A stretch of 64,000 nucleotides of DNA from IMG/VR virus record IMGVR_UViG_3300006919_000042, positions 24,236 to 88,235 of that record. One strand, written 5' to 3'. The notes below the pieces were generated by a model that had not been told where the DNA came from, searched no databases, and was given only the letters and a program-made list of their open reading frames with translations. The stretch is from a virus. The number at the start of each line of letters is the position of its first letter. Position 1 is the first letter of the stretch. Position numbers and translations under genes: made by a program. Of this stretch, positions 9,079 to 58,036 are shown piece by piece.

Positions 9079-9108
9079 TTGCACTAAAGATATAGGATGT
9101 GTATCTTT
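9079..9108 (+). promoter_or_regulatory. Bacteroidota-type promoter with AAAGATA/TATCTTT dyad
   Basis: TTG at 9079-9081, 20-nt spacer, TATCTTT at 9102-9108. AAAGATA at 9086-9092 forms a perfect 7-bp inverted repeat with the -7 box. It drives the 9133 gene and probably rIIA. Confidence 0.82.
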
Positions 9109-9132
9109 CCGTAGAATTAAAATCGGAATATC

Positions 9133-9384
9133 ATGGAATACATTGTAATTTTAGGAAAAGGATCAGTTAAAGGAACAACAATTCCCACGTCATTAAAGGT
9201 GTGGTCATCTAAATTCAATCGTGAGGTTGGAGATAAGATCACATTTGAAGGAGAAGTTTGGACAGTGCAACAAGCAGAGCTTTCATCTAAACAAGAAGCT
9301 ATTGAATTGAAGAATAGCATCATCGAACTCTTTATCGAGAAAGGATATTGGAAATCAGTAAGAACATTTAGAACAAAATTTTAA
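9133..9384 (+). CDS. Hypothetical protein upstream of rIIA
   Basis: An 83-residue mainly beta N-terminal protein ending in a helix; no family recognised. Preceded by promoter 9079-9108 and the ATCGGAATATC leader. The rIIA-like gene follows 18 bp later. Confidence 0.7.
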   Translation: MEYIVILGKGSVKGTTIPTSLKVWSSKFNREVGDKITFEGEVWTVQQAELSSKQEAIELKNSIIELFIEKGYWKSVRTFRTKF

Positions 9385-28577: not shown

Positions 28578-29132
28578 ATGAAAACTCAATTAACACCTCA
28601 AGAAAGAAAAGCAGCCAAAGCTGCAAAAGAACGTCAACATCAGTTAGATAAAGCGTTCAAATTCCTTAGCAAACAGACCACTTTAATGAGAGAGCGTTAT
28701 TATAACGCTGCTATCTCATTTGGTACACGTCAGATCGAGAATGCAATTACTGATATGGAACAGCAGATCGCAGAGCATGGTATGACAGATAATAGAAAAC
28801 ATTGGTTGAAACTACGTATGGATAGAAGAAACTACATTACTACTTCAAGTTGTGGTTGGTTGAAAGACGCAGAGGAAGTGTTCGACTCACGTTTAATTAA
28901 GATGTCAACAAGATTAGAAGAATTCGGATTCTTGAACAGTAGATTATATATGAAAGTAGCTAACGTTAATAGTGAAGACTCAAGAGAATTCAGTTTCGAG
29001 ATTGATATCACTAAGTACGAACATGGTAAGACAGAACCAACTAAGGTAGGTACAGCTCACGCTCGTTTAATTTGGGTTGAGTGTACTGAGAAGACTTCAC
29101 ATTGGAGATTCATCTGCACAAAAAGAAAATAA
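28578..29132 (+). CDS. Hypothetical protein
   Basis: 184 residues. N-terminal basic helix (TPQERKAAKAAKERQHQLDK), then helical and C-terminal beta segments (TAHARLIWVECTEKTSHWRF). No family recognised. Full promoter and ATCGGAAAAATT leader upstream. Confidence 0.7.
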   Translation: MKTQLTPQERKAAKAAKERQHQLDKAFKFLSKQTTLMRERYYNAAISFGTRQIENAITDMEQQIAEHGMTDNRKHWLKLRMDRRNYITTSSCGWLKDAEEVFDSRLIKMSTRLEEFGFLNSRLYMKVANVNSEDSREFSFEIDITKYEHGKTEPTKVGTAHARLIWVECTEKTSHWRFICTKRK

Positions 29133-29147
29133 TATTTATTATTAATC

Positions 29148-29171
29148 GAGTGCATCCTATAAGATGCACTC
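29148..29171 (+). other. Perfect 9-bp intergenic hairpin
   Basis: GAGTGCATC (29148-29156) pairs with GATGCACTC (29163-29171) across a 6-nt loop. No T run follows and the next gene begins 18 nt later, so it is more likely an RNA processing, stability or translation-control element than a terminator. Confidence 0.55.
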
Positions 29172-29188
29172 ACAATACATCGGAAATT

Positions 29189-29551
29189 ATGAACAAAAAG
29201 ATGATTTTAGTAAGATTCGCATTCGGTCCAAGTATCGAGGTGAATAAAGTGTTGGTAGAGCACATGACACAGAGAGGAAGTATGACAGTACTTCCAGGAG
29301 TTGTAGTAACTGTTTTTGACACAGATAGTACAATTGCTCAGATTGATACAGATCTACGTGCAATCGACGTATTTTACACTTTAAGTGAAATGAATGATGA
29401 AACATTCAAAGGTAACGTTCCAGGATTGGATGAAGGACCAGATCAAATCGGTGCACCTGAGATGTCACTTGAAGATCAACTTGCAGCTGCAGTTGCAGAA
29501 CAAGATTATGAGAAGGCTGCATTACTACAAAAGCAGATATCTGCGCAGTAA
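29189..29551 (+). CDS. Hypothetical protein with UVR-like C-terminal motif
   Basis: 120 residues. The start at 29189 is fixed by the ATCGGAAATT leader; an upstream in-frame ATG at 29102 lies in the previous gene. Residues about 92-118 (LEDQLAAAVAEQDYEKAALL) match the UVR helix-turn-helix motif seen in UvrB/UvrC, ClpC and Mcs proteins, which mediates protein contacts. The N-terminal domain is unknown. Confidence 0.7.
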   Translation: MNKKMILVRFAFGPSIEVNKVLVEHMTQRGSMTVLPGVVVTVFDTDSTIAQIDTDLRAIDVFYTLSEMNDETFKGNVPGLDEGPDQIGAPEMSLEDQLAAAVAEQDYEKAALLQKQISAQ

Positions 29552-29566: not shown

Positions 29567-29597
29567 TAAAAGGCTCCACATTGGGGCCTTTTTTTTG
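29567..29597 (+). terminator. Rho-independent terminator
   Basis: AAAAGGCTCC pairs with GGGGCCTTTT (one G-T pair) across ACATT, then a T run that merges into the next -33 box. Confidence 0.85.
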
Positions 29598-29627
29598 TTG
29601 CAAGAAAGATATATAAAGTGTATCTTT
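29598..29627 (+). promoter_or_regulatory. Promoter of deacetylase-like gene, AAAGATA/TATCTTT dyad
   Basis: TTG at 29598-29600, 20-nt spacer, TATCTTT at 29621-29627. AAAGATA at 29605-29611 makes a perfect dyad with the -7 box. The leader AAAATCGGAAATC precedes ATG 29658. Confidence 0.85.
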
Positions 29628-29657
29628 ATGTATTATTAACAGTTAAAATCGGAAATC

Positions 29658-30800
29658 ATGAGAAAATCAGTTAAATTTTTATACAATCACAAGCAAGTTT
29701 GCGTTGAGAACATCGCAGATAGTAGTTTTAGTAAATCACCATTGAAGCCTATGCTTTATATGAAGGATGTTGTAGCACGTTTAGGTAAGTCAGGACTAAT
29801 TGACATTATATCGAACTTCAAGCCATTCAGAACACGTGACTTTAAGAACGCACACACAGATGAGTATGTCAACGATTTCTTCACAGGAGGTCCTAAAAGA
29901 GAGTCGAACAGTATTCCTTGGAGCAAGAAACTTGCCAATTCAGTTAAGTGGACAAACAGTAGTCTTTACAATGCAGTTGAACAATCATATTTAGATCCAA
30001 ACAATCTTTATGTTAGTCCTACAAGTGGCTTTCATCATGCTGGACCAAACGGAGGTATGGGATTCTGTACATTTAGTGGTCAGGTGATTGCTAGTTTGAA
30101 GATGTACCGTAAATATGGTGTTAAAGGTGCTTATTTAGATTTAGATGGTCACTATGGTAACAGTATCGGTGATTCAAGAGAATTTGTTCAAAACAAATAT
30201 GGTTGGAACCTAGATGATATCATTCAAATGAACATCAACCCAAGAGGAACGGGATCTCAATATATTGATGATTTCGTGATGAGCTTAGGTACATTAGCTA
30301 ATAAGATCCGTCAAGGTGACGTTGATTATATCGTATGGTGTCATGGTGCTGATTCTCACAAGGATGATGACTTAGGTAGCCAATTAACTACCAATGAGTG
30401 GAAGAGCGTTAGTTCAATATTCTATACTTGGTTAAACAAATTAGAGCTTGAACTTGGACGTAAGATTCCTTTGACATTATCGTTATTTGGTGGGTACAGA
30501 AGAGATGATTATCAAAGTGTTATCAACTTACATCTTAGTGATTTGATGATAGGTATATCAGTATTGCTTGGGAAGTTCATGCCAATCGATGATTTAGAGA
30601 TTAAAGATAAAGTCAGAGTAGTTGACACTACCATCTACATAGATGAAGGTGACTTAGCTGATATGATTGATATCACAGGATTGAGTAGAAGCGTTTGTAA
30701 ATCAGCTCTAGTGAATGCTAAAGGTGATTTCGAAGATGCATTCAAAGCTCTTGATGAAAACAAAGTTGAAGGCAAGCAAACAAAATTGGTGTTATTTTAG
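29658..30800 (+). CDS. Zinc-dependent histone-deacetylase-family enzyme fused to UBA-like domain
   Basis: 380 residues. The arginase/deacetylase (HDAC) fold shows HTDEYV (66-71), the tandem His of SGFHHAG (H126, H127), the zinc ligands D163 and H165 in YLDLDGHYGN, a third ligand in HGADSH (D232), and the Gly-Gly-Tyr with the catalytic Tyr (GGY, Y280). All key residues are present. Family members remove acetyl groups from lysines, polyamines or other amides; the phage substrate is unknown. Residues about 328-366 (GDLADMIDITGLSRSVC, ALVNAKGDFEDAFKAL) resemble the UBA/EF-Ts N-terminal helical bundle. It has its own promoter and precedes a GNAT-domain gene by 24 bp. The fold call is firm by motif; physiology is inference. 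Confidence 0.85.
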   Translation: MRKSVKFLYNHKQVCVENIADSSFSKSPLKPMLYMKDVVARLGKSGLIDIISNFKPFRTRDFKNAHTDEYVNDFFTGGPKRESNSIPWSKKLANSVKWTNSSLYNAVEQSYLDPNNLYVSPTSGFHHAGPNGGMGFCTFSGQVIASLKMYRKYGVKGAYLDLDGHYGNSIGDSREFVQNKYGWNLDDIIQMNINPRGTGSQYIDDFVMSLGTLANKIRQGDVDYIVWCHGADSHKDDDLGSQLTTNEWKSVSSIFYTWLNKLELELGRKIPLTLSLFGGYRRDDYQSVINLHLSDLMIGISVLLGKFMPIDDLEIKDKVRVVDTTIYIDEGDLADMIDITGLSRSVCKSALVNAKGDFEDAFKALDENKVEGKQTKLVLF

Positions 30801-30805
30801 TAAAT

Positions 30806-30825
30806 TGCCGAAAATTAATTCGGCA
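30806..30825 (+). promoter_or_regulatory. Hairpin abutting the start codon of the GNAT gene
   Basis: TGCCGAA (30806-30812) pairs with TTCGGCA (30819-30825), whose last base is the A of the ATG. No T run. It could block ribosome access or be a binding site, making the downstream gene conditional. Confidence 0.45.
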
Positions 30826-32555
30826 TGAATATTGACAACATACAAAAAGGAGATTACATTTTCATTGATGGTCCGCTAGATAGTAAAGCTGTAGTAAACA
30901 GACTTGCCAATTTAGGGGACCTTCCGACGTTCATTGAGAGCGTCGATGTAATAAAGGCATTTGGAGATATGAATCAAGATGTCACAGATCTTGTATCAAA
31001 GGCTAGAAACATCGGAAATCTAGTTGCAGTTAAGCGTATGATGGTTAGTAAGAATGGCCGAGCATACATGAAGACTGTTTATGTCAAGAAAGAAGAGATT
31101 GAAGAAAGTCCGAAAACCAAACGATTCTTAGAGCAACATGAAGCTGAAATGGGATTGAGTGCTGGAGATAAGGTTACAGCTAAGTTCGTTGGATACAGCA
31201 CTGGAACTAAATATGAATTTGAGCACTTCAAAGTAAAAACAATCACTGCAGATAAAGTGACGTTAGAATTCACTAAGCCATTTACAGCAAACAGAAACTA
31301 CACATATTCAGTAGGAGCAGAAATAGTAGTACCAAGATCGAGTTCTCCTGATTGGAACCCAGACACATCATTCGCTAAACCTAAAGTGGTGGCACCAACA
31401 CCAGTTGTAGCTGATATGAAGGTAGTTGAGTCGATTGATGATATATCAGTAGGTGACGAAGTATTAGTTAAACAAAGAGGTGATGCACCAGATGTACCAG
31501 GAGAGATCCGCTACATACATCCTGCAGGTAATTTTATCGACATCAAAGTAGGCACCAAAGTATTGCGTAGAAAACTAGGTAGATTTTCAATTGGTAATAT
31601 ACCAACAGCACAGCCATTAACCATTGCTGGAATAAGTGATTTAACACAACATGGAATTGTTGTTAGTTTACCAGGTGTGCGAACCATTCCACGTATTGAT
31701 AGAAATCGCGTTATAGGAACAGAAGATTATCAAGCAACAATTCGCGTTGACAGATTCGGCAATCCAAATGATAGAGGGAGAAGTAGAGCAACGGTTACTA
31801 GACAACGAAACACATACTATTCAAGAACAGATGCTGAGATGGCAGCACTACAAGGTTCACAGACCTCTGATGCACTTGATAAATTCAATGAAGCATTTCC
31901 AGGAATCAACCTAGAGCAATATGCAAACGAAACCAAAGCCGCTTTTAGAGCAGCTTATCCTGGTATCAGTGATAGTTCAATTGGTGAGATTAAGATTGAT
32001 ATCAACAGAGACGGTGGGTTTGGATTAGCTATTGATAATAGCAAAATAAGAATGACGCGTAAGTTTAATGCTACAGCTAAGTCAGTATATCATTCATACT
32101 TCGTAGTTAAAGGTGGCACATCTGCACAAGGAAATGGAGTAGGTAAAGGTTTATTTAGAGCACTTTATAAACAATATAAGAATATGGGAATCAAGAAAAT
32201 CTCAGTTAGTGCTAATATTAATGTTGGTGGTTATGCTTGGGGAAGATATGGTTTCACAGCAGGAAATGCACAAGCAGAAAGGTATGTTCGATCATTTGAA
32301 CAAAATGTTGGTCGTGAGAAAGCTGGATACACAATCACTCGAGAAGATGCTCAGACAGCAAGACGTGTTTATGAGGATTGGACCAATGCAAATGGATCTG
32401 ATGCTAGATTTCCAATGAACTTACTGTGTTGTATAGGAACGAATAATAAAGCAGGGAAAGGAATACTACTTAACACAAGTTGGAGTGGTGAATTAAACCT
32501 AACTAACACCAGACAGAGAACACACTTTGAGAATTACATAGGATTTAGTGGCTAG
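30825..32555 (+). CDS. Large protein with C-terminal GNAT acetyltransferase-like domain
   Basis: 576 residues. Residues about 1-260 contain several SH3/KOW-like openings (IQKGDYIFIDG, LSAGDKVTAKFVG, ISVGDEVLVKQRG). A GNAT-type domain lies at about 385-480: strand KSVYHSYFVVKG, acetyl-CoA loop AQGNGVGKGLF (434-444), helix FRALYKQYKNMGIKKI, and the final AWGRYGFTAG element. GNAT enzymes transfer acyl groups from acyl-CoA to amines. It is in one operon with the deacetylase-family gene, so the two may act on the same target in opposite directions. Its C-terminal 100 residues are unknown. Confidence 0.75.
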   Translation: MNIDNIQKGDYIFIDGPLDSKAVVNRLANLGDLPTFIESVDVIKAFGDMNQDVTDLVSKARNIGNLVAVKRMMVSKNGRAYMKTVYVKKEEIEESPKTKRFLEQHEAEMGLSAGDKVTAKFVGYSTGTKYEFEHFKVKTITADKVTLEFTKPFTANRNYTYSVGAEIVVPRSSSPDWNPDTSFAKPKVVAPTPVVADMKVVESIDDISVGDEVLVKQRGDAPDVPGEIRYIHPAGNFIDIKVGTKVLRRKLGRFSIGNIPTAQPLTIAGISDLTQHGIVVSLPGVRTIPRIDRNRVIGTEDYQATIRVDRFGNPNDRGRSRATVTRQRNTYYSRTDAEMAALQGSQTSDALDKFNEAFPGINLEQYANETKAAFRAAYPGISDSSIGEIKIDINRDGGFGLAIDNSKIRMTRKFNATAKSVYHSYFVVKGGTSAQGNGVGKGLFRALYKQYKNMGIKKISVSANINVGGYAWGRYGFTAGNAQAERYVRSFEQNVGREKAGYTITREDAQTARRVYEDWTNANGSDARFPMNLLCCIGTNNKAGKGILLNTSWSGELNLTNTRQRTHFENYIGFSG

Positions 32556-32602: not shown

Positions 32603-32809
32603 ATGAATAACAATGAAGTTTCAGTTGAACTCGCTGGCGACAATGGGTTTACGATAGAGACACAAGCAGCAGAAAGCTACGCTGACTATGAGGCGTACTT
32701 AGAATTGAAGAAATTGCAGTTTTCCGATGAAGATGCAGCAGCCCATATGGGTATGACTGTAAAGAAATTAAACATCATTATAGAAGCATACGATCCAGGA
32801 ACAGAATAA
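32603..32809 (+). CDS. Small HTH-like protein (68 aa)
   Basis: 68 residues, acidic, with a helix-turn-helix-like stretch (FSDEDAAAHMGMTVKKLNII). May be a small regulator. Role unknown. Confidence 0.6.
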   Translation: MNNNEVSVELAGDNGFTIETQAAESYADYEAYLELKKLQFSDEDAAAHMGMTVKKLNIIIEAYDPGTE

Positions 32810-33823: not shown

Positions 33824-33854
33824 TTGGGTCGCAATCCAATAATAAGTACCTTTA
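33824..33854 (+). promoter_or_regulatory. Late-type promoter without AGATA
   Basis: TTG at 33824-33826, 20-nt spacer, TACCTTTA at 33847-33854. The spacer lacks AGATA. It drives the three-gene shared-module cluster. A weak hairpin and T run (about 33800-33825) precede it. Confidence 0.75.
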
Positions 33855-33871
33855 GACAAATTATCACACAC

Positions 33872-35167
33872 ATGGACTTAGAACAACAAATCAGGAATCA
33901 AAGAGTAGAACGAGCAAATCAATTACGCAAATCAATGTCATCTGACATATCCAAAGGAGGGGCCTTAGGTCAGGAAGGTGAAGTAAGAACATACGCAAAT
34001 GGGAAAAAGTATAAGAAAACGGGTAATAAGTGGGTTGAAGTGGGCTCTGATAAGAAGTCTAAGAAGCAAGATGAAAAGGGCGGTGAGAAGAATAAAGCGC
34101 AGGCTGGAGAATCTTCTGTAGATCGACACGAGACAGCTCAACTTACGCACATGAAATCATTAGTTGAGAGTGGAGATCATGCAAAAGCATATGAAATCTA
34201 CCAATCACTATCTCCAGAAGCTCAGAACGCTGTGCCTCAAAATATTGTCAATGATATGGTTAAGGATGGTCACTCTGAAAAGACTGATCCAGCTAAAGAG
34301 ATATTTGAAGACAAAAAAGACGTAAAGAAGGAAGAGAAGCCTGCTGAAAAACCTACTGAGAAGAAAGAATCTCTCAAAGTAGGAGATACATTTGATATGT
34401 ATGGAAGAGAAGCTAAAATTCTTTCAATTGATGGAGATAAAGCTACAATTCAATGGGGTAATGGAGATCCTATGACGCAAGATAAAGCAGGTTTAGAAAA
34501 AATGAAGAATGAAGGACCTGAGTTACAAAAAAAGATTGATGCGATAGATGAGAAGAATAAGCAAAAAGAGCAACAGAAAAAAGAAATACAAGCATCTGTA
34601 AAAAATGTAATAAAAGAAGCTCTTGGAGGCGATTTGAGATTAAGTTCAGTTTCAGAAAGAGGAGGAAGATATAGTCAAGGAAGCGTCACTCCAGAACAGA
34701 GAGCTAAGGTATTATCTGCGTTCAAGAATGCAGATAATTCAGTTAAAACAGATGCAAAAGGAACGTATGATGGAGATACTGGATATTTAGATTTTGGATC
34801 TCATACAGTACATTTAATAAATGCACGAAATAAACCAGAGGAGAGAATTGCATTTGAGATAAGGCCTAAGCGAGACGTTCAAATCAAAAAGGCTTGGGAT
34901 ACATTAGGTTTTACTAAAGCAGAAGACCTTAAAGGTGGTCTTGCAGACGGAATGTCATGTGGAGATATAGCTAAGAAGCATGGTGTAACAAAAGAGGCTA
35001 TTGAAGCGCAATTAGCAATGGGGATTAAAGTGGAAATGGAACACACCAACGATAAGAGTAAAGCATCAGAGATTGCACACGATCACTTATTTGAAGATCC
35101 AAAATACTACACCAAACTCGCTAAGATGGAGAGTGTAAAGAAATCATTTAAAATACTAGGACTATAA
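33872..35167 (+). CDS. Shared-module protein 1, with DUF5661-like C-terminus
   Basis: 431 residues from ATG 33872; an in-frame TTG at 33824 is the -33 box. Residues about 1-60 carry the module shared with the next two genes (helical start, then a YANGKKYKKTGNKWVEVG beta hairpin). A Lys/Glu-rich linker follows. The C-terminus (VEMEHTNDKSKASEIAHDHL, EDPKYYTKL) matches DUF5661, found in phage virion-associated proteins. A virion or injected protein is inferred. Confidence 0.72.
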   Translation: MDLEQQIRNQRVERANQLRKSMSSDISKGGALGQEGEVRTYANGKKYKKTGNKWVEVGSDKKSKKQDEKGGEKNKAQAGESSVDRHETAQLTHMKSLVESGDHAKAYEIYQSLSPEAQNAVPQNIVNDMVKDGHSEKTDPAKEIFEDKKDVKKEEKPAEKPTEKKESLKVGDTFDMYGREAKILSIDGDKATIQWGNGDPMTQDKAGLEKMKNEGPELQKKIDAIDEKNKQKEQQKKEIQASVKNVIKEALGGDLRLSSVSERGGRYSQGSVTPEQRAKVLSAFKNADNSVKTDAKGTYDGDTGYLDFGSHTVHLINARNKPEERIAFEIRPKRDVQIKKAWDTLGFTKAEDLKGGLADGMSCGDIAKKHGVTKEAIEAQLAMGIKVEMEHTNDKSKASEIAHDHLFEDPKYYTKLAKMESVKKSFKILGL

Positions 35168-36363
35168 TGGACCAAATTAGAAAAGCGATATTACAACAAC
35201 AGCTTGAAAGAGCTGAGAACATAGCTGAAACCTTCGAGAAGGGTCAGGCACTTCCTAATGGTACTATACGTAGAAGACCTAATGGCAACTTCATCAAAAC
35301 ACCTGCAGGGTGGAAGTATCATTCAAGTTTGAGTGCTAATAGTTCAAATGCTGTTGAGAGTGCTAATAATGCACAAGCAGTGAGAAATGCACCAGCACCA
35401 CAACCACAATTGTTGGGGATAGTTGATAATCAAAAAGTTTATAATATGCCATCTAGTCCGGAAAAAGAGTCCGCTGAATATGTTGGATTAGTAGAAAGTC
35501 AGAGAGCATATAAAAGAATAGCAACTAAACCTTCAATGCCTAAAGTAGGCGCTAGTGTTAAAATCAGTCAGCAAGGAGCTAAGCTGATATCACTACAGCC
35601 ATTTGAAGGAAAAACTCTTACAGTAGAAAAGATTGTTGATACCGGACTGATAAGTGAACCTCAACAAGTTAAGGTGACTGATGGTAAGGGAAGTTCGATC
35701 ATTGTTAGTGTAAAAGACCTTCAACCAGTAAAGGAGGCTACTAAAGCTGCATCAAAAGAAAAGATTACTACATTCGCTAATATGAGTGATGAAGGCAAGA
35801 AGGAATTAACAAAAATTGTTACCGATCCAAGTTTAGAGAAATTAAGCTCTTGGAATGGTGACCGAAACAATAAGATAATAGAGATGGTCTCAGCTAAATT
35901 TAAGCTCGATCCATCAAGAGAAGCTAAAGAGCAGGTTGTTGCTTTATATAAAGAAAGAAGTGCTGTAAAGAAACTTGCAATAAGTGCAATTTTAGATAAG
36001 TATCGACCTAATCACGGTAAGCCTATAACTAAACAAGCTGTTAAAGAGGCTATGCAAATCGACCCAAAAACTGCTCAGACGTTGATGAATCATAAGCTCA
36101 GAGCGGCGAATTGGGAATCGAGTGGCAATCCATCAAGTCATCAAACAATCAAAGGAGACAAATTAATAATCAGAATGCCAAGAGGATCTCGTGATTGGGA
36201 TAGACCGAAAGGGAATGATAAGACTCAGATGAAAACAATTATGAGTGACTTAGGATTTAAGTTGTTGAAGGAAGATTTGACTGATCCGTATGAATGGCAA
36301 GATGATAAGGGAGGTTCGGGAACGTCGAGAGATGATCAATTCACATTCAAAATGCCTAAATAA
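35167..36363 (+). CDS. Shared-module protein 2
   Basis: 398 residues. The N-terminal module is helical, then LPNGTIRRRPNGNFIKTPA and GWKYH. The centre has an SH3-like segment (MPKVGASVKISQQGAKL). The rest is helical and basic, with no catalytic motif recognised. Start and stop overlap the neighbours by one base (TAATG). Confidence 0.65.
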   Translation: MDQIRKAILQQQLERAENIAETFEKGQALPNGTIRRRPNGNFIKTPAGWKYHSSLSANSSNAVESANNAQAVRNAPAPQPQLLGIVDNQKVYNMPSSPEKESAEYVGLVESQRAYKRIATKPSMPKVGASVKISQQGAKLISLQPFEGKTLTVEKIVDTGLISEPQQVKVTDGKGSSIIVSVKDLQPVKEATKAASKEKITTFANMSDEGKKELTKIVTDPSLEKLSSWNGDRNNKIIEMVSAKFKLDPSREAKEQVVALYKERSAVKKLAISAILDKYRPNHGKPITKQAVKEAMQIDPKTAQTLMNHKLRAANWESSGNPSSHQTIKGDKLIIRMPRGSRDWDRPKGNDKTQMKTIMSDLGFKLLKEDLTDPYEWQDDKGGSGTSRDDQFTFKMPK

Positions 36364-36809
36364 TGGACGATATACAAAAAGCAAACCAAGCACAACGATT
36401 ACAAGTACAAGAAAACGTAGAGACGATGTCTAAGGGCGAATCTCTACCCGTTGGCACAACTCGTACTCATGGAGGTAGAACTTTCATTAAAACGCCAGGA
36501 GGATGGAAATATCATGGTAAAGGAGCTGCAAGTGTAAAGTCAGGTACTGATGCGAAAGCAGCTAGTACATCACATACATCTTCAGTTGAGAAAGTAAATG
36601 ACATTACATTTGTGGTTGATATTAAAAGTCAATATGGAACAACTCGTCAAACATATTCAAACGTTCAAGAAGCGAATAGAGCTAAGAAGCAAGTTGATGA
36701 TGCATTCAGATCAGGTAGCATCAAATCAACAGGTGATGTAGGTAAAGTACTTAACAGTAGTGGTAATTCAGATAAAATATACGGCGATTTATACAAATTG
36801 AAATCATAA
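36363..36809 (+). CDS. Shared-module protein 3, N-terminal part (interrupted gene)
   Basis: 148 residues ending at TAA 36807-36809. It begins with the same module (ESLPVGTTRTHGGRTFIKTP then GGWKYH). The same reading frame continues directly after the stop with protein-like sequence to 37625. The full frame of about 420 codons matches the lengths of the two preceding paralogues (431 and 398). So the stop is a nonsense change, a read-through site or a sequencing error. Confidence 0.65.
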   Translation: MDDIQKANQAQRLQVQENVETMSKGESLPVGTTRTHGGRTFIKTPGGWKYHGKGAASVKSGTDAKAASTSHTSSVEKVNDITFVVDIKSQYGTTRQTYSNVQEANRAKKQVDDAFRSGSIKSTGDVGKVLNSSGNSDKIYGDLYKLKS

Positions 36810-38466: not shown

Positions 38467-38949
38467 ATGAAAACCATAAAAGGAGATTTAATCAAACTAG
38501 CACTTCAAGGTGAGTTTGATGCAATAGTGCACGGATGCAACTGTCACAATGTGATGGAAGCTGGAATTGCTGCACAGATAAAAAGATACTTTCCAGCAGC
38601 ATATCAGGCTGATGAGGTGTTTGCAGATGGTATCTCAAACTATAACAAATTAGGATGCTTATCATTTGCAGACATTGAGGTTCATGGCGATGAAGATGAT
38701 ATTACTACAGTAACCGAAAGATTCACTGTTGTAAATGCATACACACAATATGATTTGGGACGTAATCTTGATGAAGATGCACTAATAATGTGTTTGAAGA
38801 AGATTAATCACTACTATAAAGGAAAGAGTGTAGGGTTGCCTCAAATAGGTTGTGGAATTGCAGGAGGCAATTGGGCAGTAGTTAGTCAACTAATAGATAA
38901 ATATACACCGGATTGTGATGTCACAGTAGTGATGTACGATCCGAAATAG
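38467..38949 (+). CDS. Macro-domain protein (ADP-ribose binding or hydrolase)
   Basis: 160 residues, a complete macro domain: the opening KGDLIKLA, the loop HGCNCHNVMEAGIAAQI (about 22-38) and the second phosphate loop LPQIGCGIAGGNW (about 120-132). Family members bind or hydrolyse ADP-ribose, ADP-ribose-1''-phosphate or O-acetyl-ADP-ribose. In a phage this may reverse ADP-ribosylation or process NAD-derived products of host defence or of tRNA repair; this is inference. The NCHN and GCGIAGG loops are intact. Confidence 0.83.
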   Translation: MKTIKGDLIKLALQGEFDAIVHGCNCHNVMEAGIAAQIKRYFPAAYQADEVFADGISNYNKLGCLSFADIEVHGDEDDITTVTERFTVVNAYTQYDLGRNLDEDALIMCLKKINHYYKGKSVGLPQIGCGIAGGNWAVVSQLIDKYTPDCDVTVVMYDPK

Positions 38950-40290: not shown

Positions 40291-43200
40291 ATGAAAAAGC
40301 ATATTCTATTACTTGCTCTGCTTTTAGCTACTACATTTGGCTTTTCGCAGGCAAAGAAGACTTTCAAGACTGAAGTAGCAATTGAACAAACGCCCGCAGC
40401 TGTACCAGCTACGGATTTTGTGTTATCAATACAAGCTGATGGAACATTAACTAAAACAGCAATTTTAGTAACTGATGTACAAACTGGCGCATTTTCCTTA
40501 GAAGGATATGATGAGAGTGGCACTAAGGCTGGATTGAACTTGATTGTAGGATTAGGTGATTATAGCTTAGCTGGTAATGGTACTGGAATCACACTAACTG
40601 ATGCAACTGGACTTACCCAATTACGTAGTAATATATGGGAGTTCCTTTCAAATGTTTCTGGATTTAAGACAGATATAGATGGTGATGGCCTCACAGCAAA
40701 TAGGACATTTACACTTCCTAACGCAAGTGGGATCCCAGCATTAGATGTTAATGGTGTTGCTTCTAGTACAGTAGGAAGTATAACATTAACCACACAAAAT
40801 TTAACTAATGATGGTGAAGATGGTATTAATAAGTACATAACACTTTCAGACATCTATCAAGGAAATACGTTAATCAACGGTGATTATTATCATGATACAG
40901 GATTTACTTATCAAGCATGGGCTGATTTATATATAATTGACGGAGTAGTTTATAACACACTGATTTCAGATGCAGTGACACTATCGCCTGCACACGCTAC
41001 ATTAGATAGGATTGACGTAATTGTTGTTAATAATAATGGAACCATTACAGCAGTAACTGGCACAGCAGCAGCTAATCCAGTTAAGCCTGAGATTGATTTA
41101 GATACTCAAGTCGAGATGACATTCGTGTTGGTTCAAGCCAATACAACTACACCAGCCTCAGTTACAGAGTTATTGGTATATGATGAGAATGCTGGTGATC
41201 CAACAGAGTGGGACTCAGCAACTTCAGACGGATCAATTACTTTAGCAGCTACTGGAACAACACAAAGTGGCACTAATGCAATTCGATTCAATACAGCAGC
41301 AGTTGGTGATCAATTAACTTTAACAGACCTAACAACAATATCTTCTAGTGATTACAATAAAATAATCTTCTACGTCAAATTAGACAATGTACTTGATCAT
41401 AGAATACGACTAACTCTTAGTAATACTGGTGGTTCAGATGTATCTAATACAGCTACACTTCAACATGGTAGTTATGGATTAGACACATCAAACACATCAA
41501 CATATCAATTGATAATTATTCCAGTCAGTGATTTGGCGATAGGAGTTCAAACATATGATAGGTTAACAATTTACAATGACAAAGCAACTGCATCATTTTA
41601 TGTAGATAATATGATACTGCAGACTGGAACTAATCCAGTTGCTGGACCTACAATTACAAACACATCACAGTTAATCAATGACGGTCCTGATGGAGTCAAT
41701 CCATACTTAACGTCACTAACTGAAAGTAACATATATAACTCAGATGGCACAATTACAGTAAACAGAGTAATTGATGCTGATGGCAATTCCATCTCAATTG
41801 ATAATGCGAACGGAGATACGATGTTATTAATTGATACGACCCTTGATGCAGAGGTAGCAAAGATCGGCGCAATAAACCCTGCAAATGGAGGAAATGACGC
41901 TAGCTTTGAAGGAAGTACTTCAGCAACATTATCGACATCTACAACACAAGCAGATTATGATAACGGAACTCAGACGGCAAGTCAAACTTTAGCAGCCAAT
42001 GCAGGAAGTTCTTCAATAACAGCACAAGCAACCAACATAACAATTCAAAATGAAGCTGGATTAAATAAGGTTGAGATTGACGGAACTAAAGTCAATGCAT
42101 TAGCTGGGGCTAATGGACTGAAGGCATTAAGTGCAGGGACAACTGATCTCGTTGGTTTGAATGGATTGAGACTTAAAATTGGTACTGGAGGAGTAGAAAC
42201 ACCTTCAGTGGTAGGATATGTACCAACAGCAACTAATGTCAATGGCAATGTTACATGGCAGCCTGGTGGAGCAAGTTCAATATACAATGCAGATGGATCA
42301 TTAGCTGGTAATAGAATAATGTCACTAAACGGCAATACATTAAGGGTGAATGATGCAGCTGGTAATTCAGCATTAGAAATCGACCCTACAATAAATACAG
42401 AAACAACAGTAGTAAGTGCAAATAACGCAACTGGTGGAGGGAATGAAGCAAGTGTAGATCTTTCTACCACAGACACAGACGTAGTAAGTGAACTCAAAGC
42501 ACAGTTCAATGGTGGAGCTAAGCAGGCTAGTATATTACAGCAAGTAGATGTAACCGAATCATCAACTGAAATAACAACAGATGTATTGAAAGTGGTGTTG
42601 CCAACACCACCAACAGTTGGACAATTCCTTCAAGCAACAAATGTTGATGGCACAGTAGATTGGACCACATCATTAATACGTGAAACATCAAATAATTTAT
42701 TTGGAGGGTCAACAGCAGGTGCAAACATCGTTATTGATGGTGGTAATACAGGGTTTGGAGTTGCTGCTTTAGAAAGTTCAAATGCTATAAATAATAGTGG
42801 ATTTGGGTTTGAAGTACTACGAGAAAATGCAGGTCAAAGAGTTAATGGATTTGGGTTATGGGCTGGTAAGCGGAATACTGCAGATGATGGTAATTTCTTT
42901 GGTCAAGAATCAGGACAATTTAATAAAGGAGCTAGAGTTGTAGGATTTGGTGGAGAAACAGTACAGAATAACCAAGGAGACGATGTTGTAGGCATTGGAA
43001 ATGACGCTTTAATTTATAATGAAGAAAATCAAAATACAGCAGTAGGTTCTGAATCGTTTGTATTTTTAACAAATGTAGCTGGATTAAAAAGTTTCGTATC
43101 TGGTGATGTTACAGCAGGTACCGATAGAATAGCAATAACCGCTCATAACTTTGGCACAACGGGTGCTTTTGTTAATCTATTATATTCAGGAGTTACTGGA

Positions 43201-50227: not shown

Positions 50228-51916
50228 ATGTCATACATTAATAGCAATCAAATTATAAACACTCAGCCACTAAGCTCAATTGATGAGCAGCTTAAACAGT
50301 TGCAGATTGAGAAGGGTAGAGTTGCTCAGAAAGAATATCAGATTGTCAGTAAAGCATTATCATCGGATAATCCAAATGACATCATGAAAGCCAATACGTA
50401 TTGGGAAGATGTTCAAACCAGACAGTCAAGTGGACTGAAGACTGAATTAGTTGATCCAACTCAATGGACACAAGGTGCTGGTTACAAATACAAAAGATTT
50501 ACATTAAGCTACGATATGATGAGACGTATGGTTTCTACCACACCAATCATCAAATCAATCATAGGAACACGTCAAGCTCAAGTTAGTGCGTTTAGTTCGC
50601 CTCAAAAGAGTAAGTTTGATACTGGATTTGTTGTTCGTAAGAAACGCGCATACTATTCAGATGAAGACCCTACAACAACTGCAAAAGACAAAAAGCAGAT
50701 TGACTACATAACAAAATTCCTACTTGATGGTGGTGATAAGTCAAATGCGTGGAGTGGAGATACTTTCGATATGTTCTTGAAGAAATTAACCGCTGATAGT
50801 TTAACGCTGGATCAAGGAACGTTTGAAGTGGTAAGAAATAGAGGTGGTGCACCAGTTGAATATCTTGCAGTAGATGGTGCAACAATGAGAATGGCAGATA
50901 GTATTAATGACGATGACAATTCATTCAACGAACAATCGAATTATATGGGTGAACCACGTAAGAAGATTCGTGGATACTATCCATCATACGTTCAAGTAAT
51001 TGATGGAATCATAGAGAATGAATACTACCCATGGGAATTGTGTTTAGGTATCAGAAATGCTACTACAGACATTCGTTCAAATGGATACGGTAAGAGTGAG
51101 ATTGAAGAGTTAGTAAGCATAATCACATGGATGTTATATGGAGATACATACAATGGGAAATTCTTCTCACAAGGAAGTAGCCCAAAAGGTATGTTGAAAG
51201 TCGCAAGTGGCGTTAATAGAAACAGATTAAATGAATTCAGACAACAATGGTTAGCTATGGTTGCTGGAGTTCAGAATGCGTGGAAAGTGCCAATTGTTGA
51301 AGGTGACGTTGAGTGGATTGATATGCAGAAAGGTAATAAGGACATGGAATTTAGTAAGTGGCAAGAGTATTTGATTCGCGTTGCTTGTGCTGTGTTTAAG
51401 ATTGCACCTGATGAGATTGGATTCAAACTAGACAACGGAAGTGGTGGTTTAGGTGGAGAGAATGATACTGATGTTAAAATCAGATATTCAAAAGATAAAG
51501 GATTAAAGCCATTATTGAAATCAATGGAGTTTTGGATCAACAAGTGGATTGTTCAAGCAATCGACGATGAGTTTGAATTCAAATTTGTTGGTTTGGATCA
51601 AGATGGCGAAGACAGAGAAACTGACTTACTCAACAAGAAAGTTGGTATGGGTATGGGAGTTAAAGAGTGGAGAAAAGCACAAGGACTTGATCCAGAATTC
51701 GATGAAGGTGATTTCCCATTAAATGCAGTATGGGTTCAGCAACAAGCTGCAGCCGCATTTGGAGAGCAAAGTGAAGATAATACACAAGGAATTGATGAAG
51801 GTCAAGTAGAGGATATGTGGTCAGATCTTGGCAAAGCTACTCTATCGTCACAATTTACACAGTATGAGGACAATCCAATGATGAAAGATGCAATGGATTT
51901 GCTACTAAAAGGATAA
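50228..51916 (+). CDS. Portal protein
   Basis: 562 residues with the usual portal order: an N-terminal helical region, the LSYDMMRRMVSTTPIIKSII helix with GTRQAQVSAF, a wing region (ADSLTLDQGTFEVVRNRGGA, PVEYLAVDGATMRM), the stem and clip (SEIEELVSIITW, SPKGMLKVASGVN) and a Glu/Gln-rich C-terminus (WVQQQAAAAFGEQ). It forms the 12-fold ring for DNA entry. The assignment rests on this layout plus its place upstream of MuF, protease and capsid genes. Confidence 0.83.
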   Translation: MSYINSNQIINTQPLSSIDEQLKQLQIEKGRVAQKEYQIVSKALSSDNPNDIMKANTYWEDVQTRQSSGLKTELVDPTQWTQGAGYKYKRFTLSYDMMRRMVSTTPIIKSIIGTRQAQVSAFSSPQKSKFDTGFVVRKKRAYYSDEDPTTTAKDKKQIDYITKFLLDGGDKSNAWSGDTFDMFLKKLTADSLTLDQGTFEVVRNRGGAPVEYLAVDGATMRMADSINDDDNSFNEQSNYMGEPRKKIRGYYPSYVQVIDGIIENEYYPWELCLGIRNATTDIRSNGYGKSEIEELVSIITWMLYGDTYNGKFFSQGSSPKGMLKVASGVNRNRLNEFRQQWLAMVAGVQNAWKVPIVEGDVEWIDMQKGNKDMEFSKWQEYLIRVACAVFKIAPDEIGFKLDNGSGGLGGENDTDVKIRYSKDKGLKPLLKSMEFWINKWIVQAIDDEFEFKFVGLDQDGEDRETDLLNKKVGMGMGVKEWRKAQGLDPEFDEGDFPLNAVWVQQQAAAAFGEQSEDNTQGIDEGQVEDMWSDLGKATLSSQFTQYEDNPMMKDAMDLLLKG

Positions 51917-51919
51917 ATT

Positions 51920-52546
51920 ATGTTAGCATTATTGAAAATTGAGAATCTCAAAACGTTTTTGATCGTAGGAGCAATCATAGCAGCTGTGATCTTCTGGAAG
52001 GACTACCAATATCAAATCGGAGAGAATAATCGTCAAACTGAGAATATGGAACAAGTGCGTAAGTTCGATAGCTTGAAGTTTGCTAGTCAGACATACACCA
52101 AAAAAGAGATTGATGAATATCTTGAATACAATAGAAGCGATTTAAAGGACTTTCTTAATAAGTACGACATAAAGACAAGGAGACTAGAAAAGATCATTAC
52201 ACAATCATTAGAGTACCGTGATACAACGTCAAACAACATTGATTTGAGTCCTATATTACAAGCAATCAAAAATAACACTAGAGAAATTTCAGTTCCGGTG
52301 ATTGATAGTACCGACTGTTTAATTGTAAAAGGATTTGTTATATTCAAGAATGATACACTATCACTAAACATAACTGATCGTAAATTCAAAAATAAGAGTG
52401 ATGTTGTTCAATATTGGGAAAGAAACCAATGGAACTTTCTAGGAATAAAAACTAGACTGTTCGGTAAGAAGAGTACAACAGTAATCATCAAAGATAGTTG
52501 TGGAAACACAGAAACATTTATTATTGATGCTAAAAAGAAATCGTAA
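51920..52546 (+). CDS. Membrane-anchored protein, Rz/i-spanin-like
   Basis: 208 residues: N-terminal transmembrane helix (FLIVGAIIAAVIFWKDYQY), coiled-coil middle (DIKTRRLEKIITQSLEYRD), and a C-terminal part with FLGIKTRLFGKK. Bacteroidota phages often carry this type of protein near portal or lysis genes. A spanin-like role is a guess by topology. Confidence 0.6.
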   Translation: MLALLKIENLKTFLIVGAIIAAVIFWKDYQYQIGENNRQTENMEQVRKFDSLKFASQTYTKKEIDEYLEYNRSDLKDFLNKYDIKTRRLEKIITQSLEYRDTTSNNIDLSPILQAIKNNTREISVPVIDSTDCLIVKGFVIFKNDTLSLNITDRKFKNKSDVVQYWERNQWNFLGIKTRLFGKKSTTVIIKDSCGNTETFIIDAKKKS

Positions 52547-54393: not shown

Positions 54394-54888
54394 ATGAAAA
54401 CATTAATCTTTCAAGACCCAGCACAAACCTTACGAGTAGAGGCTAAAGTTGACATTATGGCGACTAACGCTGAATTACAAACAGCAGGATTCGATACTCG
54501 TTTCACCAACATGGAGATTGTTGACAATGATGCATCTAAGATTGCAGGTATTGATTTGACTGAGGTTGAATATAGTTGGATTGCAATAAGACAATTTGCT
54601 GAGGACAACGGATTTTCTCTTACTGTCATTGACATTAATGAGAACGCATCTGATGACATTGTTACTTGGACAGCAATCACTGGTACAGTAGCCGGAACAA
54701 TAGGATTGGCTGCAATCACTGGTACTGCTACTGATTTTGACCCTGAGTTAGATGTCGATGACGTTGTTAGTATAGACGGGTTCGTTTACACAATAGCAAC
54801 AAGAGCCGGTGCAGCTGATACAGCAGCAACGATCAATGAGACTTTCCAGACAACATTTACTGGAGTTCCATTATACATCAAGAACTAA
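54394..54888 (+). CDS. Hypothetical structural-region protein
   Basis: 164 residues, acidic. The C-terminal half is beta-rich and Thr/Ala-rich (DDIVTWTAITGTVAGTIGLA). Possibly a head decoration or accessory protein, inferred from its place just before the protease gene. A TACATTTA -7-like box (54350-54357) lies upstream but lacks a -33 TTG. Confidence 0.62.
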   Translation: MKTLIFQDPAQTLRVEAKVDIMATNAELQTAGFDTRFTNMEIVDNDASKIAGIDLTEVEYSWIAIRQFAEDNGFSLTVIDINENASDDIVTWTAITGTVAGTIGLAAITGTATDFDPELDVDDVVSIDGFVYTIATRAGAADTAATINETFQTTFTGVPLYIKN

Positions 54889-54889
54889 T

Positions 54890-56437
54890 ATGAACAAAGA
54901 TTTCAAAATACACATCCCGATTGAGCTAATCAAGGGGAAGGATAAGTCTGGAGCAGCTACCATGAAAATGAGAGGTATAGCTTCAACCCCTTCGTTAGAC
55001 GCTGACGGTGAGTATCTTGATCCGAAAGGATTCCAGTCCGACTATTTTCTTAAACATGGGTTTATGAATTGGAATCATCAAACAAATAATGACCCATCTT
55101 CTATTGTAGGTCGACCTACATCAGCCAATGTAAAAGGAAAGGATTACGTTATAGGCTTTGATCTATTCCCCGAAAGCAAAAAAGCACAACAAGTATTCGA
55201 GTTACAACAAGTATTGGAAACACAAGGACTTGCGTTAGGCCTTTCTATTGAAGGAAAGGTTGTCGAACGAGACGCTAACAATAAGTCAAAGGTGACCAAA
55301 GCGCTAATTACTGGATGCGCTATTACTCCAAACCCAAAAAACAGGGATACAGTTGCTGAGATTATCAAAGGCAATACCACGTATAGTGCGTTGGTTGATG
55401 AAGACGAGAACGAGGACGACGACGAAGACAAGGAAGAAGAAAAGTCAATGTCTGCAGGCTCTTCAAGTGGTCAGGCATTGGCTTTGGAGTCATTAAATAG
55501 CGACACAAAAACGCTGGCATACAAGAAAAAAATTAAAAAGGGTGACATCTTAGAGAAAATTTCCCGAGATTTACCATTAATTAATAACCAGATGGTTTCT
55601 ACCATCTATGATTTAACAACAAAAATTCAAAAAGCGATGGATAACGCCAAAACAAACAACGAGGTTCCTGAAGTTACAGTAGAAAGTCTTGAGAAGGCAT
55701 ACGAAATTTTAGGTCTGACAGAAACAACCGAAGAAATAGTGCAAGAAGTCGTAAAAGGTGAAGACTCTACAGTATTGAATGAAATGACACCTGAGGCAAT
55801 AGCAGCTAAAAAAGCTGAACTTCAAAAATCTCTTGCAGATATCGAAGCACTTGAAAAAGGTGAAGAGGTTGAGGTAGTAGCGGAAGCTGCTGCAGAAGTG
55901 GTTCAAGAAATCATTAAAGGTGAAGAGGTTGTAGCAGAAGAAGTTGCAGAAGTTGTTGCAGAAGTTGTTACAGCACCAGTTGTTACAGCGCCAGTTGTTG
56001 AACCAACTGCACAAAATGAAGTAGTAAAAGCTATGACAGAAGTTTTCAAAGGAGAACTTGCTGGTGTAGCAGAAGCAAATAAAGAAAAATTCAAAGCCGT
56101 TGGAATGCTTGTTAAAGGTTTCCAAGAAGAGGTACAAGAGCTGAGAGGCCAAGTACAAGAAATGGCAGATGAAACTCCTGGAAAGAAAACAATCACTAAA
56201 GCACAAGTACTTAAAAAGTCATTTGATAATGGTGAAGGTGACGATAAAGGACTCAACTATGTGAGTATCAAAGCAAACAAATCATCTATTGCAAAAGCAT
56301 TGACAGATGATTTCTTCAAAGGTGAAGTTCAAGACGAGAAATTCAGAAAGAGCTTATTGAAGTTTGATCAATCAAGTGTTGCTGATCCAGCAGTAGTTGC
56401 AAAAGCAAAAGAATTAGGAATGACTCTTGTACCATAA
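54890..56437 (+). CDS. Prohead protease fused to scaffold
   Basis: 515 residues from ATG 54890. An upstream in-frame start at 54809 lies inside the previous gene. Residues about 1-170 form the caudovirus prohead serine protease: KMRGIASTPSLDADGE, the His in FMNWNHQTN, and the Ser strand GLALGLSIEGKVV. A very acidic linker (DEDENEDDDEDKEEEKS) and a long Glu/Ala/Val coiled-coil (about 240-400) follow, which look like an internal scaffold. The C-terminal 60 residues are basic. Maturation would cleave the scaffold. Confidence 0.83.
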   Translation: MNKDFKIHIPIELIKGKDKSGAATMKMRGIASTPSLDADGEYLDPKGFQSDYFLKHGFMNWNHQTNNDPSSIVGRPTSANVKGKDYVIGFDLFPESKKAQQVFELQQVLETQGLALGLSIEGKVVERDANNKSKVTKALITGCAITPNPKNRDTVAEIIKGNTTYSALVDEDENEDDDEDKEEEKSMSAGSSSGQALALESLNSDTKTLAYKKKIKKGDILEKISRDLPLINNQMVSTIYDLTTKIQKAMDNAKTNNEVPEVTVESLEKAYEILGLTETTEEIVQEVVKGEDSTVLNEMTPEAIAAKKAELQKSLADIEALEKGEEVEVVAEAAAEVVQEIIKGEEVVAEEVAEVVAEVVTAPVVTAPVVEPTAQNEVVKAMTEVFKGELAGVAEANKEKFKAVGMLVKGFQEEVQELRGQVQEMADETPGKKTITKAQVLKKSFDNGEGDDKGLNYVSIKANKSSIAKALTDDFFKGEVQDEKFRKSLLKFDQSSVADPAVVAKAKELGMTLVP

Positions 56438-56512: not shown

Positions 56513-58036
56513 ATGGAAAATCTATCAGTAAACTTAGATTCCTACAATCACGGAAGCGGTTTCGCAGGAGAAGCTAGCCAACAAGCAGACATTTCTTCTG
56601 AGCAATTAGCTGAGTTAGCAAAAGCTCTTGAAGCTGGCGCTCTACAAGGTGGTGATTTAGTAGGGTCACAAACAAATGGTGGCGCTTTAAAGACAGAGTC
56701 TTTGGAGAGTTCACTTAAATTAATCACGTTCCGTGAGTCGGATATTCGTTTTTGGAAGAGATTCCCAAAAACAGCTGCGTATAACACAGTTGAAGAATAT
56801 AACCAACACACTAGCTACGGTACAGAAAGAGGTGGTTTCAACAACGAAGGCGAATTGCCGGAAGAAGAAGATTCTAGCTATGTACGTAAGGCAGAGCACG
56901 TTAAGTACTTAGGTGTAACTAAATCAGTTACTCACCCAATGCAATTGGTTAGTACTAACGTTGGAAACATTGTTCAAAAAGAAACCACTAATGGAATTAT
57001 GTGGATCTTACGTAAAGCAGACAGAGCTTTGTTTTACGGTGATGAGAAAGTGATCGGCCAGGAATGGAACGGACTTTATGCTCAGCATTTGAATAACGAT
57101 CAATTCGCTAACTTAGAAGAGTATTATGCTTCTAACTTAGTAATCGATTTAAGAGGGGCAGCTTTAACTGAAGCGAACATTGAGACTGGTGCTCAAACGC
57201 TTTTAACTAAGTTCTCTCAACCTGATTTACTTGTTGGTCCTCCAATAGTATTCAGTGAATTTGCTAAAGGATTCTATGCTCGTCAAAGAATTCAAATGGG
57301 TGGAACTCAAAACGCTAATGTTTCCGGTGCAACAACTGGTCAGCACATTAGTAACTTCCAATCTATGTACGGCAAAATCGATTTCGAATATGATATCTTT
57401 GCAGCTAAGGGAGTAGGGAAATTATCTAGTACAGGAGCAAGTTCGCCAAAAGCCCCAGCGTCTCCGAACGTTGCAGGTGGTGTAGTAGTTGCTACTGGAG
57501 ATGGTTTATCAGCTTTCGCAGATGGAATTGGCGATTATTTTTATGCAATCGCAGCAACTAACCGATATGGTGAGTCAGCAATGGCACAGATTGGCGCTAC
57601 AATTACAGTAGCAAATGCAGATGATGCAGTTGATTTGACTTTCCTTGCAGGAGCAGGAGCTTATACTCCTAATGCATATACAGTTTACAGATCAGAAAAG
57701 AATCCAGGAAGTACTTTCGCTAACACAGTGATGTATCCAATCGCAACAGTTCCAGCTACTGGTACTGACGTTAAGAGAGGATCATTAGCAAATGGTGTTG
57801 ACGGTGGTGCAGCAGGAACAGTAAGAGATAGAAACAGAGTTTTACCAAACACTCAAGAAGCACTTTTACTTCAAGGTGACACAGACGTTATAGAGTTCAA
57901 GCAATTAGCTCCATTAATGAAAATGCCATTAGCGAAGTTAAGTCCAGCTGACAGATTCATGGTATTACTTTATGGTACTCCAATAGTGTACGCACCATCA
58001 AAAATGGTACGTTACGTAAACATTGGTTTAGCATAA
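56513..58036 (+). CDS. Major capsid protein (SU10-like, HK97 fold) with Ig/FN3-like insertion
   Basis: 507 residues. The N-terminal helical arm (SEQLAELAKALEAGALQGG) and ESSLKLITFRESDIRFWKRF, then EYNQHTSYGTERGGFNNEGE and KADRALFYGDEKVIG, are typical of the SU10-type capsid family. Residues about 305-440 (APASPNVAGGVVVATGDGLS, YFYAIAATNRYGESA, AYTVYRSEKNPGSTF) look like a fibronectin-III/Ig-type beta insertion. The C-terminus (MKMPLAKLSPADRFMVLLYG) returns to the capsid fold. It ends at a strong terminator. Confidence 0.87.
   Translation: MENLSVNLDSYNHGSGFAGEASQQADISSEQLAELAKALEAGALQGGDLVGSQTNGGALKTESLESSLKLITFRESDIRFWKRFPKTAAYNTVEEYNQHTSYGTERGGFNNEGELPEEEDSSYVRKAEHVKYLGVTKSVTHPMQLVSTNVGNIVQKETTNGIMWILRKADRALFYGDEKVIGQEWNGLYAQHLNNDQFANLEEYYASNLVIDLRGAALTEANIETGAQTLLTKFSQPDLLVGPPIVFSEFAKGFYARQRIQMGGTQNANVSGATTGQHISNFQSMYGKIDFEYDIFAAKGVGKLSSTGASSPKAPASPNVAGGVVVATGDGLSAFADGIGDYFYAIAATNRYGESAMAQIGATITVANADDAVDLTFLAGAGAYTPNAYTVYRSEKNPGSTFANTVMYPIATVPATGTDVKRGSLANGVDGGAAGTVRDRNRVLPNTQEALLLQGDTDVIEFKQLAPLMKMPLAKLSPADRFMVLLYGTPIVYAPSKMVRYVNIGLA

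What the first reader, a model, noticed from the sequence alone, without database searches (positions are those of the whole stretch)
29598..32555. Phage operon pairing a complete HDAC-family deacetylase/UBA-like fusion with a GNAT acetyltransferase-like protein
Seen: the 29658 gene carries every catalytic element of zinc-dependent deacetylases (tandem His 126-127, D163/H165, D232, Y280) plus a C-terminal UBA/EF-Ts-like bundle. The next gene has a GNAT acetyl-CoA loop (AQGNGVGKGLF) and terminal GNAT elements. Known: these families remove and add acyl groups on amines. Inference: the pair could write and erase acetylation on a host or virion protein, a polyamine or a modified nucleic acid. The deacetylase could equally detoxify a host-made acyl modification. 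I know of no described phage system with this pairing.
Basis: partly seen in the sequence, partly recalled or inferred. Interest (0 to 1): 0.88.

Follow-up and report, generated by a model that had tools for sequence, protein, structure and literature searches.

The report
Phage deacetylase beside head-linked acetyltransferase-like protein
A virus of bacteria carries a complete gene for an enzyme of the histone-deacetylase type, taken from bacteria, directly in front of a gene for an acetyltransferase-like protein whose relatives belong to virus head proteins; the two keep company in a few related viruses, but whether they work as a pair is not shown.

Summary
ORF 29658-30800 is a genuine HDAC-family enzyme (Pfam E 4.5e-18; AlphaFold pLDDT 88.5; Foldseek E 4e-16) with the full zinc and catalytic site, invariant in 42 homologs. 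It belongs to an unstudied subfamily found in Bacteroidota, Leptospiraceae, Myxococcota and many large phages; phages acquired it repeatedly. Its nearest solved relatives are class-IV/HDAC11-like long-chain deacylases. The C-terminal UBA/EF-Ts-like bundle is weak and not conserved. The next gene has a divergent GNAT fold. Its relatives sit directly before head protease and major capsid genes, or form the C-terminal domain of MuF-type minor head proteins (also in a cultured Alteromonas phage). The GNAT is best read as a head-linked, probably injected effector, and the HDAC as a deacylase made in the infected cell. The pair is not a fixed operon: adjacent here, five small genes apart in one relative, 34-46 kb apart in two, absent in the nearest relative. 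Still, within this phage clade all four HDAC carriers also carry the GNAT, against 1 of 25 without HDAC, and their HDACs are not one clade. A writer/eraser link is possible but unproven. Phage HDACs and phage GNATs are each already known.

The parts
29568..29592 (+). intrinsic-terminator-like hairpin (11 pairs, then T-run) upstream of the HDAC gene; the HDAC-GNAT unit starts after it
   Evidence: sequence; region has 11 terminator-like sites against 2.5 expected in shuffles
29658..30800 (+). zinc-dependent deacylase of the HDAC family, 380 aa; H126-H127, D161, D163/H165, D232, Y280; foot-pocket motif TSGFHH and FGGY
30654..30758 (+). C-terminal three-helix UBA/EF-Ts-like tail of the deacylase (residues 333-367), weak and not conserved
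30825..32555 (+). 576-aa protein: beta-rich N-terminal part plus C-terminal GNAT-like domain (about residues 360-575) with acyl-CoA motif QGNGVG and GGYAWGRYGF
29102..29551 (+). 149-aa protein with a UVR-motif tail, upstream of the HDAC; homolog directly upstream of the HDAC in the relative G001
32603..32809 (+). 68-aa protein after the GNAT gene; homolog directly after the GNAT gene in G001
50228..51916 (+). portal protein (context)
   Evidence: phrog_12 E 3.4e-38
54809..56437 (+). head maturation protease (context); its homologs directly follow the GNAT gene in G002 and G005
56513..58036 (+). major head protein (context); used to define the phage clade

Best explanation
Two accessory genes that act at different stages of infection. 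The first encodes an active zinc-dependent lysine deacylase (HDAC fold), acquired from a bacterial, most likely Bacteroidota, source and made in the infected cell. There it would remove acetyl or longer acyl groups from host or phage proteins, probably reactivating enzymes or transcription and translation factors silenced by acylation. The second encodes a head-associated polyvalent-type protein with a GNAT domain. It is probably packaged with the DNA and delivered into the host, where it would transfer an acyl group to a host protein, in the way proposed for MuF/polyvalent effectors. Shown: family, intact active site, recurrent HDAC acquisition by phages, head-gene context and MuF fusion of the GNAT's relatives, and co-occurrence within this phage clade. 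Inferred: enzymatic activity, packaging, targets, and any functional link between the two.
For: HDAC: PF00850 E 4.5e-18; catalytic residues invariant in 42 homologs; model pLDDT 88.5; closest solved structures Leptospira HDAC11-like 9gz5 and V. cholerae HdaH 9gkv by both sequence and fold. VcHdaH has an SGGYHH foot-pocket motif, and the phage has TSGFHH. Related loci: 49 in IMG/VR and 80 in prokaryote contigs. Phage HDACs are not one clade (AU p 8.6e-42). GNAT: homologs lie directly before the head protease and major head protein in G002 and G005. The same domain ends MuF-type head-morphogenesis proteins that directly follow the portal gene (L145, L147), the minor head protein of Alteromonas phage R7M and is repeated in a 4547-aa polyvalent protein. 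Literature: GNATs in polyvalent proteins (PMC5512222); GNATs of jumbo phages predicted to modify host proteins (PMC7824862).
Against: No activity was measured. The GNAT domain is below Pfam cut-off in this protein and its model is poor overall (pLDDT 62.4). In this phage the GNAT gene lies about 22 kb from the head protease gene, and the protein lacks a MuF domain, so packaging is inferred from relatives only. Acyl-CoA motifs are worn in some relatives (WGGGLA, QGKNLT). FGGY puts an invariant Phe at the foot pocket where cluster-5 enzymes have Gly or Ser, which may exclude long chains.
Confidence: 0.55

Rival explanations
1. Writer/eraser pair: the deacylase removes the mark made by the phage's own GNAT, as an antidote or timer that limits the injected effector.
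For: Adjacent and co-directional, with no terminator between them on that strand. Same block (29102-like, HDAC, GNAT, 32603-like) in G000 and G001. In the clade, 4 of 4 HDAC carriers have the GNAT against 1 of 25 others (Fisher p 2.1e-4). The four HDACs are not one clade (AU p 0.003), so they were gained more than once in GNAT-bearing phages.
Against: Five small ORFs apart in G001, and 34-46 kb apart in G002 and G005. G045 has the GNAT alone. R7M and other MuF-GNAT records show no HDAC. Thirty other HDAC phages show no such GNAT. Only 4 independent pairs on the MCP tree, sign test p 0.125. The GNAT profiles were built partly from HDAC-bearing phages, which biases detection.
Confidence: 0.18
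2. Small-molecule deacetylase: the HDAC frees polyamines (N-acetylspermidine) or removes an acyl group from a host-made metabolite or modified nucleotide; the GNAT is unrelated.
For: Giant-virus HDAC-family enzymes are proven N-acetylspermidine amidohydrolases, and phages encode spermidine acetyltransferases (PMC9992855). Some HDAC-family enzymes act on small molecules.
Against: Nearest solved relatives are cluster 5, not the polyamine cluster 4; residue 239 is Leu at the gatekeeper position, not the Glu of HDAC10 (the equivalence of position is my own reading of the sequence). No polyamine gene was recognised among the window genes scanned.
Confidence: 0.2
3. The GNAT domain is a catalytically dead structural or interaction domain of a head protein, and the HDAC is ordinary host-metabolism cargo; their proximity is chance.
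For: Weak GNAT scores, eroded motifs in some relatives, nearest relative G044 lacks both.
Against: QGxG motif kept in 5 of 7 aligned homologs; a copy in L149 passes PF00583; association within the clade.
Confidence: 0.17

Closest known systems
Bacterial cluster-5 / class-IV HDACs: V. cholerae HdaH (9gkv, 9gky) and Leptospira interrogans HDAC11-like (9gz5)
   Same: fold, zinc site, HH dyad, SGGYHH-like motif (here TSGFHH) in place of RPPGHH before and at the dyad
   Different: about 19-20% identity; FCTFSGQ and invariant FGGY signatures; phage-borne; variable C-terminal tails
Rhodococcus phage E3 gp202, annotated 'putative histone deacetylase protein', and Microbacterium phage Magritte gp204
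   Same: phage-encoded HDAC with the same catalytic residues
   Different: 21-26% identical, other branch, no GNAT neighbour annotated
Huge-phage HDAC genes in LR756504 and LR756501/LR756503
   Same: same subfamily, 46-48% identical
   Different: no relative of the 30825 GNAT found in these genomes; records unannotated
Polyvalent proteins and MuF polymorphic toxins (PMC5512222, PMC5576092)
   Same: GNAT-like domain at the C-terminus of head-associated proteins, encoded near portal, protease and capsid genes
   Different: 30825 itself lacks the MuF domain and lies away from the portal-capsid cluster; a different N-terminal part
Giant-virus acetylpolyamine amidohydrolases (PMC9992855)
   Same: virus-encoded HDAC-fold enzymes
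   Different: different cluster and hosts; substrate proven there, unknown here
Phage sirtuins (Sir2/CobB) of T5, KVP40 and Vibrio phages (PMC5107563)
   Same: phage-encoded deacylase activity (predicted)
   Different: unrelated NAD-dependent fold

Membership tests
HDAC (classical zinc-dependent deacylase) family | PF00850 above gathering score | tested here: met
   66 bits against cut-off 27.9, E 4.5e-18
HDAC (classical zinc-dependent deacylase) family | HH dyad, Asp-x-His plus Asp zinc ligands, catalytic Tyr in GGY | tested here: met
   invariant in 42 homologs
HDAC (classical zinc-dependent deacylase) family | arginase/deacetylase fold | tested here: met
   AlphaFold pLDDT 88.5, Foldseek E 4.3e-16 to 9gz5, TM by target 0.75
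HDAC (classical zinc-dependent deacylase) family | deacylase activity | not testable with these tools
   needs purified enzyme
cluster 5 / class IV (HDAC11-like) deacylases | nearest in sequence and structure to VcHdaH / HDAC11-type | tested here: met
   first hits; no tree with reference HDACs could be built here
cluster 5 / class IV (HDAC11-like) deacylases | open foot pocket: SGGYHH/GGGFHH and [GS]GGY motifs (PMC11532494) | tested here: inconclusive
   TSGFHH fits; FGGY does not
acetylpolyamine amidohydrolase (cluster 4) | closest relatedness to cluster 4 enzymes; polyamine-specificity L2 loop and dimer | tested here: inconclusive
   APAH (6pi8) ranks only 29th in the fold search; the loop was not examined
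GNAT superfamily | Pfam GNAT model above cut-off | tested here: not met
   13.6 bits against 23.6 for the window protein; met for a homologous domain in L149
GNAT superfamily | Q/R-x-x-G-x-G/A acyl-CoA motif and GNAT strand/helix order | tested here: met
   QGNGVG; strands 389-428, helix 435-454, strand 458-463; nearly all best Foldseek hits are GNATs, but E 0.015 or worse
MuF / polyvalent head-associated effector | MuF domain in the same protein | tested here: not met
   no MuF or head-protein PHROG hit in 30825; present in homologs L145 and L147
MuF / polyvalent head-associated effector | encoded among portal-protease-capsid genes | tested here: inconclusive
   true for homologs in G002, G005, L145, L147 and R7M; in the window the gene lies about 22 kb before the head protease gene
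MuF / polyvalent head-associated effector | packaged in the virion and injected | not testable with these tools
   needs virion proteomics
conserved HDAC-GNAT operon | the two genes adjacent in related phages | tested here: not met
   five small ORFs apart in G001, 34-46 kb apart in G002/G005, both absent in G044

The most novel reading that the evidence does not exclude
A head-delivered acyltransferase effector is offset by a cell-expressed HDAC-type eraser encoded by the same phage: a writer/eraser or effector/antidote module built on acylation, analogous to ADP-ribosyltransferase/ADP-ribosylhydrolase pairs. HDACs would have been recruited more than once into phages that carry the GNAT effector.
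Probability: 0.13. Interest if true: 0.85.

Novelty: new variant of a known kind. Interest (0 to 1): 0.5.

Why it matters
HDAC-type deacylases in phages have hardly been described: one phage gene is annotated so, PHROGs has no matching family, and the viral structure library returns only giant-virus HDACs with significant scores. The finding uncovers a subfamily shared by Bacteroidota and large phages that moves repeatedly between them. It gives a concrete candidate for phage control of host protein acylation, and separates it from a head-linked GNAT effector that can be tested on its own.

Tried and rejected
Single-sequence scans of IMG/VR for either protein found nothing; alignments were needed. 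I tested whether the huge-phage neighbour 'c1' (about 654 aa, LRGTGLGYKLYR motif, near the HDAC in about 30 loci) is the same GNAT: not shown (hhalign probability 5.9, one short motif), so it is not used as a second pairing. Defence-system function for the HDAC, the GNAT or the common neighbours: no PADLOC hit. Writer/eraser as a general rule for phage HDACs: rejected by 0 of 30 other HDAC phages having the GNAT (that call had no positive control, but the same profile finds G045). Conserved operon: rejected. UBA tail as a defining feature: rejected, since tails vary between homologs.

Full report
Check of the observation. ORF 29658-30800 encodes 380 aa and matches PF00850 with E 4.5e-18. AlphaFold with these homologs gives mean pLDDT 88.5, and Foldseek finds HDACs throughout (E 4.3e-16 for 9gz5). 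The C-terminal bundle is a weak match to UBA/EF-Ts domains, modelled at low confidence, and missing in the nearest homolog L007, which has 324 aa. Other phage HDACs have different tails. ORF 30825-32555 begins 24 bp after the HDAC stop on the same strand. A terminator-like hairpin lies before the HDAC at 29568-29592, and none on that strand lies between the two genes. The GNAT assignment is weak by direct Pfam score but supported by fold and by a homologous domain that passes the PF00583 cut-off.

Where the HDAC comes from. Searches with a three-member profile found 49 IMG/VR loci and 80 loci in prokaryote contigs, mostly Bacteroidota with some Leptospiraceae, Myxococcota and Planctomycetota, including isolates (Xanthocytophaga flavus, Candidatus Uabimicrobium amorphum). 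Some 'cellular' contigs are phages binned with a host (L064 shares the phage gene order), so host/phage labels are noisy. Phage members are intermixed with cellular ones: at least 7 label changes are forced by well supported branches, and one phage clade is rejected (AU p 8.6e-42). The subfamily is marked by FCTFSGQ, DLDGH[FY]GN and FGGY. The closest solved structures are V. cholerae HdaH and a Leptospira HDAC11-like enzyme, both by sequence and by fold. VcHdaH belongs to the class-IV-like cluster 5, with which action on longer acyl chains has been reported (PMC11532494); the HDAC11 name of the Leptospira enzyme is from its PDB title. The phage motif TSGFHH agrees with that group, but the invariant Phe of FGGY does not, so chain-length preference is left open.

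What the GNAT protein is. Homologs were found in the records G001, G002 and G005 and in IMG/VR. In G002 and G005 the gene lies directly before the head maturation protease and the major head protein. In L145 and L147 the same domain is the C-terminus of a protein whose N-terminal part is a MuF-type head-morphogenesis protein, directly after the portal gene. In L149 it is repeated within a 4547-aa polyvalent protein with zeta-toxin domains. In the cultured Alteromonas phage vB_AcoS-R7M it lies in the annotated minor head protein between portal and scaffold. Iyer et al. (PMC5512222) describe GNATs in polyvalent proteins injected with phage DNA, and PMC7824862 proposes that jumbo-phage GNATs modify host proteins. 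I therefore read 30825 as a head-linked effector-type protein. It lacks MuF itself and ends about 22 kb upstream of the head protease gene, so packaging is inferred.

Is it a pair? I collected relatives by major head protein and tested 28 records of at least 34 kb plus the window's own. HDAC is present in four: G000, G001, G002, G005. The GNAT domain is present in the same four plus G045. Fisher p is 2.1e-4, but it ignores kinship, uses fragments, and used GNAT profiles partly built from HDAC-bearing phages. On the MCP tree there are only four independent contrasts, p 0.125. The four HDACs are not one clade (AU p 0.003), which argues for repeated gain in GNAT-bearing phages. Against a fixed pair: the genes are separated by five small ORFs in G001 and by 34-46 kb in G002 and G005; the nearest relative G044 lacks the whole block; 30 other HDAC phages show no such GNAT. 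In that last call nothing matched, so it had no internal positive control, although the same profile finds G045.

Mechanism. Most likely the HDAC is an active lysine deacylase made during infection, and the GNAT protein an effector delivered with or made for the virion; both alter acylation of host proteins independently. The alternatives (writer/eraser pair, polyamine or other small-molecule deacylase, inactive GNAT) remain open. Giant-virus HDAC-family proteins are proven N-acetylspermidine amidohydrolases (PMC9992855), which keeps the small-molecule rival alive.

Novelty. Phage HDACs exist in annotation (Rhodococcus phage E3 gp202), phage GNATs are well known, and phage sirtuins are described (PMC5107563). 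What is new here is the HDAC subfamily shared with Bacteroidota, its repeated transfer into phages, and its unexplained company with a MuF-type GNAT in one phage clade. I file it as a new variant of known kinds.

Noticed in passing
window 38467-38949: Macro-domain protein (PF01661, E 2.1e-6, above cut-off), conserved in the relatives G044 and G045; possible ADP-ribose or O-acetyl-ADP-ribose chemistry in the same phage.
   Followed up: partly
window 33824-36809: A run of genes sharing an N-terminal module (helix, then ...NG.FIKTP.GWKYH); similar modules recur in G044 and G045. Possibly head- or DNA-associated accessory proteins.
   Followed up: no
window 32603-32809: Small gene kept directly after the GNAT gene in G000 and G001; in MuF toxin systems such small downstream genes are proposed immunity genes.
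   Followed up: partly
L149:3048-16689: 4547-aa MuF-type polyvalent protein with several copies of the GNAT domain, zeta-toxin domains and apparent RelA-like stretches.
   Followed up: partly
L009-L055 (for example L015:7173-9134 and L003:15934-17211): In about 30 large-phage loci the HDAC lies near a 425-660-aa protein with LRGTGLGYKLYR and an N-terminus reminiscent of T4 capsid-targeting sequences (from memory); GNAT identity not shown.
   Followed up: partly
L071:6005-7836 and about 20 other Flavobacteriales loci: Cellular HDACs of this subfamily often lie next to a VWA-like protein and a 380-aa protein of unknown family (no Pfam or PADLOC hit for the latter).
   Followed up: partly
L072 HDAC 7962-9197 and L011 HDAC 9968-11143: Different C-terminal tails on HDACs of this subfamily (a winged-helix-like one in L072), suggesting exchangeable targeting tails.
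   Followed up: no
L064: 254-kb contig binned as a Bacteroidetes MAG carries the gene order of the HDAC-bearing large phages; probably a mis-binned phage.
   Followed up: no
L004:14956-15866: HDAC of the 595-kb phage LR756511 is split by a frameshift, real or an assembly error.
   Followed up: no
window 40291-46809: 2172-aa protein with BNR/Asp-box repeat hits only; large virion or surface-binding protein of unknown type.
   Followed up: no
window 52546-53160: Inorganic pyrophosphatase-like domain (PF18823, E 3.1e-41) encoded between portal and head protease.
   Followed up: no
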